Virus record (IMG/VR): IMGVR_UViG_3300045738_001212
Location: 62,001-126,000 of that record
Reading direction: 5' to 3' (one strand)
Origin: a virus
DNA: 64,000 nt
Shown here: piece by piece, positions 16,562 to 17,020 of the stretch
How positions within the stretch are numbered: the first letter of the stretch is position 1
How the letters are laid out: the number at the start of each line of letters is the position of its first letter
Notes under the pieces: model-generated
Database searches by the model: none
Told to the model about the DNA's origin: nothing
The model's input: only the letters and a program-made list of their open reading frames with translations
Translations under genes and position numbers: made by a program

Positions 16562-17020
16562 TGGTGGAGGCGGCGGGAATCGAACCCGCGTCTTTGGAGC
16601 CATCGGCTCAAATATACTACAAGCTTAATCAGTGCCATGTTCCTCGTATATAGCAGGTCACTGATTAAACCAACCGGGCCGCTCAAAGAGCGACTGGGAC
16701 TAACGTAAAACGTTAGACGCCTACACGAGTTTGAAGTCACATTTTATACTAGCGTTACAACCGCCCTAGTTTTTTGCTCGCTATCGACGCCCTAGCTCCT
16801 TAACGAGCATCCAGAGTAGGACGGGGCAGAACTTAAGCTGCCAGCGTGGCCTCTTCGGCCCAACCGAAACGAGCGAGAATCTCGTCTGCTTCAGCCAGAG
16901 AAGGAGCCATGTCAATATTACTATTGGCATATATGTTTTTAATGGAAGTTTTAAGAGGCCAACCATCATCCTCTGCTTGCAATCTGGCGTAAGATTCCAA
17001 ATCGAATCCAGTACGCCCCC
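16562..17020 (-). ncRNA. ssrA: Transfer-messenger RNA (tmRNA)
   Basis: This 459-nt minus-strand RNA begins GGGGGCG at 17020 and ends CGCCTCC-ACCA at 16562. These ends pair over 7 bp into a tRNA-like acceptor stem, and CCA is encoded. The 3' part has the T-arm GCGGGTTCGATTCCCGC, and the 5' part has CTGGATTCGATTTGG. An internal frame ends ...EEATLAA followed by TAA at 16833, the usual A-A ending of proteolysis tags. If translation resumes at GCC (16928-16926) the tag has 31 residues; a shorter tag from a later Ala codon is possible. Its product would rescue stalled ribosomes. Phage tmRNA genes are known but uncommon. Confidence 0.93.

What the first reader, a model, noticed from the sequence alone, without database searches (positions are those of the whole stretch)
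16562..17020. Phage-encoded tmRNA with an unusually long tag frame
All tmRNA landmarks are present, with a perfect 7-bp acceptor stem and encoded CCA. The tag could be up to 31 residues ending EEATLAA. A phage tmRNA could redirect tagged host or phage proteins to proteases; the phage also encodes ClpP-like and HtrA-like proteases.
Basis: partly seen in the sequence, partly recalled or inferred. Interest (0 to 1): 0.7.

Follow-up and report, generated by a model that had tools for sequence, protein, structure and literature searches.

The report
Phage tmRNA with conserved long tag
This virus of bacteria carries its own tmRNA, the RNA that frees stuck ribosomes and tags their unfinished proteins; its tag is three times the usual length and holds a helix-like motif that a whole clade of related viruses has kept, which suggests the tag does more than mark proteins for destruction.

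Summary
A complete one-piece tmRNA gene lies on the minus strand at 16562-17020 (Rfam RF00023, 123.9 bits, model 1-374). It has the 7-bp acceptor stem with the alanine signal G3·U70, the T-arm, four pseudoknot regions, an encoded CCA, and a 31-codon tag ANSNIDMAPSLAEADEILARFGWAEEATLAA whose stop lies in the helix-5 loop. Covariation over 38 aligned tmRNAs supports the fold (42 of 79 pairs changed on both sides; 0 of 500 shuffles reach this).

What is new is the tag. Sampling viral contigs by the tmRNA 5' end alone gave 36 relatives. Of 35 readable, 34 share a core, A-P-S-[LV]-x-E-A-D-x-I-L-A-x-F-G-[WYF], with pN/pS 0.22 in frame against 1.27 and 1.57 out of frame. The core is more conserved than the C-terminal AA degron. 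A motif scan without tmRNA context hit 44 contigs, each in a short tag-like frame. AlphaFold2 gives a short helix.

Best reading: a working tmRNA using host SmpB, with a clade-specific docking helix in its tag. Partner and host are unknown.

The parts
16562..17020 (-). complete one-piece tmRNA (ssrA) gene, 459 nt
   Evidence: Rfam RF00023 123.9 bits, model 1-374; covariation in 38 aligned tmRNAs
16833..16928 (-). tag reading frame, 31 codons plus TAA: ANSNIDMAPSLAEADEILARFGWAEEATLAA
   Evidence: homologous tags in relatives
16863..16907 (-). conserved tag core APSLAEADEILARFG, predicted short helix
   Evidence: pN/pS 0.22 in frame vs 1.27 and 1.57 off frame; residue conservation; AlphaFold2 helix at tag residues 11-20
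17014..17020 (-). acceptor stem 5' strand GGGGGCG
   Evidence: 7/7 paired with 16566-16572, G3.U70 in 38/38
16562..16572 (-). acceptor stem 3' strand, discriminator A and encoded CCA
   Evidence: sequence, covariation at pairs 4 and 5
16573..16589 (-). T-arm with TTCGATT loop
   Evidence: 100% paired in relatives, two covarying pairs
16941..16974 (-). pseudoknot PK1, ending 12 nt before the resume codon
   Evidence: both stems covary (helices 3 and 4)
16825..16842 (-). helix 5, with the tag stop codon in its loop
   Evidence: GGCAG/CTGCC with compensatory changes; 75.5% of cells paired in the alignment (helix 5)
16776..16823 (-). pseudoknot PK2
   Evidence: 98-99.6% of cells paired, 12 pairs with changes on both sides (helices 6 and 7)
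16748..16770 (-). PK3 region, one stem (ACTAG/CTAGT) identified
   Evidence: helices 8 and 9, weaker: 67.6 and 80.6% paired
16627..16729 (-). pseudoknot PK4, enlarged by an insertion with two extra hairpins, shared in the alignment only with L061
   Evidence: helices 10-13
17024..17033 (-). promoter-like element GTGTAATATT upstream of the tmRNA
   Evidence: GTGTA within 22 nt upstream in 29 of 41 tmRNAs vs 1.9% of control windows

Best explanation
This is a functional phage tmRNA that works in ordinary trans-translation with host partners, but its tag has been rebuilt. Host alanyl-tRNA synthetase charges it through G3-U70, host SmpB carries it to ribosomes stalled on broken messages during infection, and the ribosome resumes at GCC and adds 31 residues before stopping in helix 5. 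The tag keeps an AN-type start and an Ala-Ala-type end, which host ClpXP-like proteases would read as a degron. Between them lies a conserved short amphipathic helix (APSxxEADxILAxFG), most likely a docking site that couples tagged proteins to one specific partner, such as an adaptor or protease of the host or phage. Shown: RNA fold, gene integrity, translation-type selection on the tag, conservation of the core, no phage SmpB, SspB or confirmed Clp ATPase in the records searched. Inferred: charging, use of host SmpB, degradation, and docking as the reason for conservation.
For: Rfam full-length match. Covariation: 42 pairs with changes on both sides against 17.8 expected, 0/500 shuffles; 91.2% of cells paired against 39-50% for slid controls; G3-U70 invariant in 38/38. 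Unbiased 5'-end sample: 34 of 35 readable tags carry the core; pN/pS 0.22 in frame, 1.27 and 1.57 off frame, and third codon positions vary about three times more than first or second. Most indels within the tag are multiples of three; the few of 1-2 nt appear to be alignment shifts at the stop codon. Core positions are conserved at up to 97% against 86-89% for the last two residues. The motif scan of viral contigs without tmRNA context hit 44 stretches, all in short tag-like frames, most with tmRNA ends in view. AlphaFold2 helix at tag residues 11-20, pLDDT about 88 in that block. No SmpB, SspB or Clp ATPase above cut-off in 18 records. Own promoter-like element.
Against: No partner was identified, so docking is inference. 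The core-bearing phages whose genes were compared are one clade that shares many genes, so ancestry adds to the similarity, though it does not explain the in-frame bias. Part of the coding sequence may also be held by RNA constraint: the Leu codon is CTC in 31 of 32 distinct sequences and the Ile codon ATT in 29 of 32. The host and its tag are unknown.
Confidence: 0.6

Rival explanations
1. The tag is simply a long degron. The extra helix only lengthens it, helping a protease engage proteins released from the ribosome, with no specific partner.
For: AN...AA ends look like ordinary tags; long tags of 22 and 28 aa without this core occur in other viral-contig tmRNAs; the sequence-related tmRNA L058 has a 32-aa tag with only a degenerate core.
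Against: A mere spacer would not need near-invariant residues across relatives; the core is more conserved than the C-terminal AA, and some tags end VE or AV.
Confidence: 0.22
2. The tag copies the tag of the unknown host, so the core belongs to a bacterial lineage and was carried over by the phage.
For: Phage tmRNAs often track host lineages (PMC9004378); tag ends such as ANNIV...AAVAA recall cyanobacterial tags (from memory, not tested).
Against: A scan of genome contigs of 84,980 species for CTGGATTCGA-type tmRNAs with a relaxed core gave two hits that are not tmRNAs at the Rfam threshold; 0 of 398 Pseudomonadota genomes hold the core. Both tests are partial: hosts with another 5' sequence or phylum would be missed.
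Confidence: 0.12
3. The conservation is at the RNA level: the segment forms a structural element of the tmRNA and the peptide is incidental.
For: A short GAG-ATT-CTC hairpin is possible in the core, and the CTC and ATT codons are nearly fixed.
Against: Synonymous changes are abundant at Ser, Leu/Val, Ala, Asp, Phe and Gly codons; pN/pS is 0.22 in the tag frame only.
Confidence: 0.05

Closest known systems
Standard one-piece bacterial tmRNA (ssrA, Rfam RF00023)
   Same: Acceptor stem with G3.U70, T-arm, pseudoknots, helix 5 around the stop codon, encoded CCA
   Different: Tag of 30-36 aa with a conserved helical core; the commonest tag length in the database is 10 aa (PMC11915505); window PK4 carries an extra insertion
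Known phage tmRNAs (mycobacteriophages such as Bxz1, Bacillus phage G: PMC4131195; OM43 phage Melnitz: PMC9004378)
   Same: Full ssrA carried by a phage; Melnitz likewise has a large genome with RNR, RecA and DnaB genes
   Different: The Melnitz tmRNA is two-piece and reported as glutamine-riboswitch controlled (PMC9004378); no relative of this tag was found in 50,697 public phage records by tblastn
Host-style SsrA degrons read by ClpXP with SspB
   Same: AN start and AA end of the tag
   Different: Conserved helix between the two ends; no phage SspB or confirmed Clp ATPase

Membership tests
tmRNA (RF00023) | Full-length covariance-model match above the curated score | tested here: met
   123.9 bits vs 47, positions 1-374
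tmRNA (RF00023) | tRNA-like domain: 7-bp acceptor stem, T-arm, CCA, alanine identity G3.U70 | tested here: met
   G3.U70 in 38/38
tmRNA (RF00023) | Pseudoknots | tested here: met
   PK1, PK2 and PK4 with covariation in both stems; PK3 one stem only
tmRNA (RF00023) | Resume codon after PK1 and in-frame tag ending in a stop in helix 5 | tested here: met
   12-nt spacer, 31 codons, TAA in the H5 loop; coding selection on the core
tmRNA (RF00023) | Aminoacylation, SmpB binding and tagging in vivo | not testable with these tools
   needs infected cells or purified parts
SsrA degron for ClpXP | C-terminal hydrophobic residue then Ala-Ala | tested here: met
   window tag ends LAA; 28 of 35 tags in the sample end LAA, VAA or MAA
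SsrA degron for ClpXP | Degradation of tagged protein | not testable with these tools
   needs a proteolysis assay
Phage-encoded protease module fed by the tag | ClpP with a matching phage ATPase or adaptor, present wherever the tmRNA is | tested here: not met
   ClpP in 5 of 18 partial records, no ATPase above cut-off, no SspB

The most novel reading that the evidence does not exclude
The tag is not mainly a degron. Its helical core docks every protein released by trans-translation onto one specific host or phage partner during infection, so the phage has turned ribosome rescue into a protein-labelling or host-takeover device.
Probability: 0.3. Interest if true: 0.85.

Novelty: new variant of a known kind. 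Interest (0 to 1): 0.58.

Why it matters
Phage tmRNAs are known, but why phages carry them is open. Here a phage clade has kept a specific, translated, helix-like module in the tag, more strictly than the degron at its end, which points to a defined partner and gives a testable reason for carrying a tmRNA. The core peptide is short and can be synthesised, so its partner can be looked for directly.

Tried and rejected
Blastn of window 16000-17300 in 50,697 phage records at E 1e-5: no match; tblastn of the tag there up to E 10: no match. Blastn of the L008 tmRNA at E up to 10 gave only short matches, among them crAss-like phages that resemble PK1; the two of those scanned are not tmRNA by Rfam. 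No known fold or family for the tag. No other copy of the motif elsewhere in this phage record. Reading as a free-standing peptide from the internal ATG was set aside because the Met is not kept in some relatives, e.g. L037 VDF, L050 VDV, L009 EIL. Host by photosystem genes: none in 18 records. Host by nearest phage proteins is inconsistent: RNR nearest to flavobacterial phages, RIIA to roseophages, terminase to Microcystis and Bacillus phages. A bacterial search by phylum was made only for Pseudomonadota: 0 of 398. A comparison of genes among core-bearing records gave the shared gene set of one phage clade and no obvious partner candidate.

Full report
The window is bases 62001-126000 of a 157,997-base IMG/VR virus record. 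Rfam places a full-length tmRNA at 17020..16562 on the minus strand, 123.9 bits against a gathering score of 47. ARAGORN does not report it, probably because the tag and the PK4 insertion make it long, but it finds most of the 40 relatives scanned; for those with the longest (MEF/MEM-type) tags it reads a truncated tag or misses the gene.

Anatomy (tmRNA numbering): acceptor 1-7 with 449-455, with G3-U70; PK1 47-80; resume codon GCC at 93; tag 93-185; TAA 186-188 inside helix 5 (179-183 with 192-196); PK2 198-245; PK3 stem 251-273; PK4 292-394, with an insertion carrying two extra hairpins that in the alignment is shared only with L061, where one pair has a compensatory change; T-arm 432-448; CCA 457-459.

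Relatives. A scan on 5'-end sequence gave four viral contigs with conserved long tags. A scan with core plus 5' end gave 24. A scan on the peptide core alone gave 44 stretches, each in a short frame ending like a tag; most show a tmRNA 5' or 3' end in view, and a few lie at contig edges. To remove selection bias I scanned on the 5' end only: 36 contigs, of which one (L063) ends inside the tag; of the 35 readable, 34 carry the core and one (L058) has a 32-aa tag with a degenerate version. L058 lies in a phage that shares few genes with the others.

Fold. On 38 aligned tmRNAs, the window-derived structure has 91.2% of cells paired, 42 of 79 pairs with changes on both sides, and a covariation score of 0.201 against 0.099 in shuffles, never reached in 500; slid controls pair 39-50%. 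The structure was read from the window sequence, so percentage paired leans towards it; the two-sided changes depend on that much less.

The tag is translated and selected. In 32 distinct core sequences from the 5'-end sample plus the window, pS 0.40 and pN 0.088 give a ratio of 0.22; the other two frames give 1.27 and 1.57; third positions differ in 32% of pairwise comparisons against 9-10% for first and second. Indels in the tag are almost all 3 or 6 nt. The core consensus is APS[LV]xEADxILAxFG[WYF]. Most of its fixed positions are at about 97%, while the last two residues of the tag are Ala in 86-89% (the hand-entered window row there is shifted by one position, which lowers the core figures slightly). 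AlphaFold2 on the tag alignment gives a helix at residues 11-20, pLDDT about 88 for that block. Ser10 and Glu13 fit an N-capping box and Gly22 a C-cap (my reading of the pattern, not a computed result).

How unusual. In a generic sample of viral-contig tmRNAs, in which one enteric-type tag dominates, tags are 9-28 aa, mode 10. The 97,179-sequence database gives 10 aa as the commonest length (PMC11915505). Phage tmRNAs as such are known: 402 of 18,146 phage genomes in one survey (PMC9004378). The library searches found no report of this tag, but only open-licence papers are held.

Setting and mechanism. The tmRNA has its own promoter-like element, GTGTA 13-17 nt upstream (once 20) in 29 of 41 cases against 1.9% background. 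In 26 of 53 loci a DnaB-type helicase gene lies downstream on the same strand, typically about 1 kb away (named by similarity to the window's DnaB ORF); in the window the replication genes lie elsewhere. No SmpB, SspB or Clp ATPase above cut-off was found in 18 records, so host machinery is implied. The phage ClpP-like protein is real but not a constant companion. I therefore read the core as a docking helix for a partner still to be found, laid on top of ordinary trans-translation. Charging, SmpB use, degradation and docking are inference.

Limits. The host is unknown; the host-tag comparison could be made only partially. All related records are fragments or of unstated completeness, so absences are provisional.

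Noticed in passing
window 14576-14766 (-): manA RNA motif (RF01745, 57.3 bits, just above its 55.2 cut-off); another at L023 7553-7743 on a tmRNA-bearing contig.
   Followed up: no
window 16325-16516 (-): Six copies of a GAGGATTANNACAT-like motif, 30-47 nt apart, between the tmRNA and a sigma-factor-like ORF (15659-16303).
   Followed up: partly
L009 2145-2212: Pistol ribozyme (RF02679, 59.7 bits) about 390 nt upstream of that contig's tmRNA.
   Followed up: no
L073-L076, about 1500-1540: Three crAss-like phages (Loutivirinae) and one fecal phage clone carry a PK1-like pseudoknot sequence just ahead of a gene start; L073 and L074 give no tmRNA in Rfam.
   Followed up: partly
window 55752-56165 (+): An MRLY-type ORF lies directly downstream of the tmRNA in 15 of 41 cases; in the window its apparent homologue follows the UvsX gene without a tmRNA, so the tmRNA has changed place between relatives.
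   Followed up: partly
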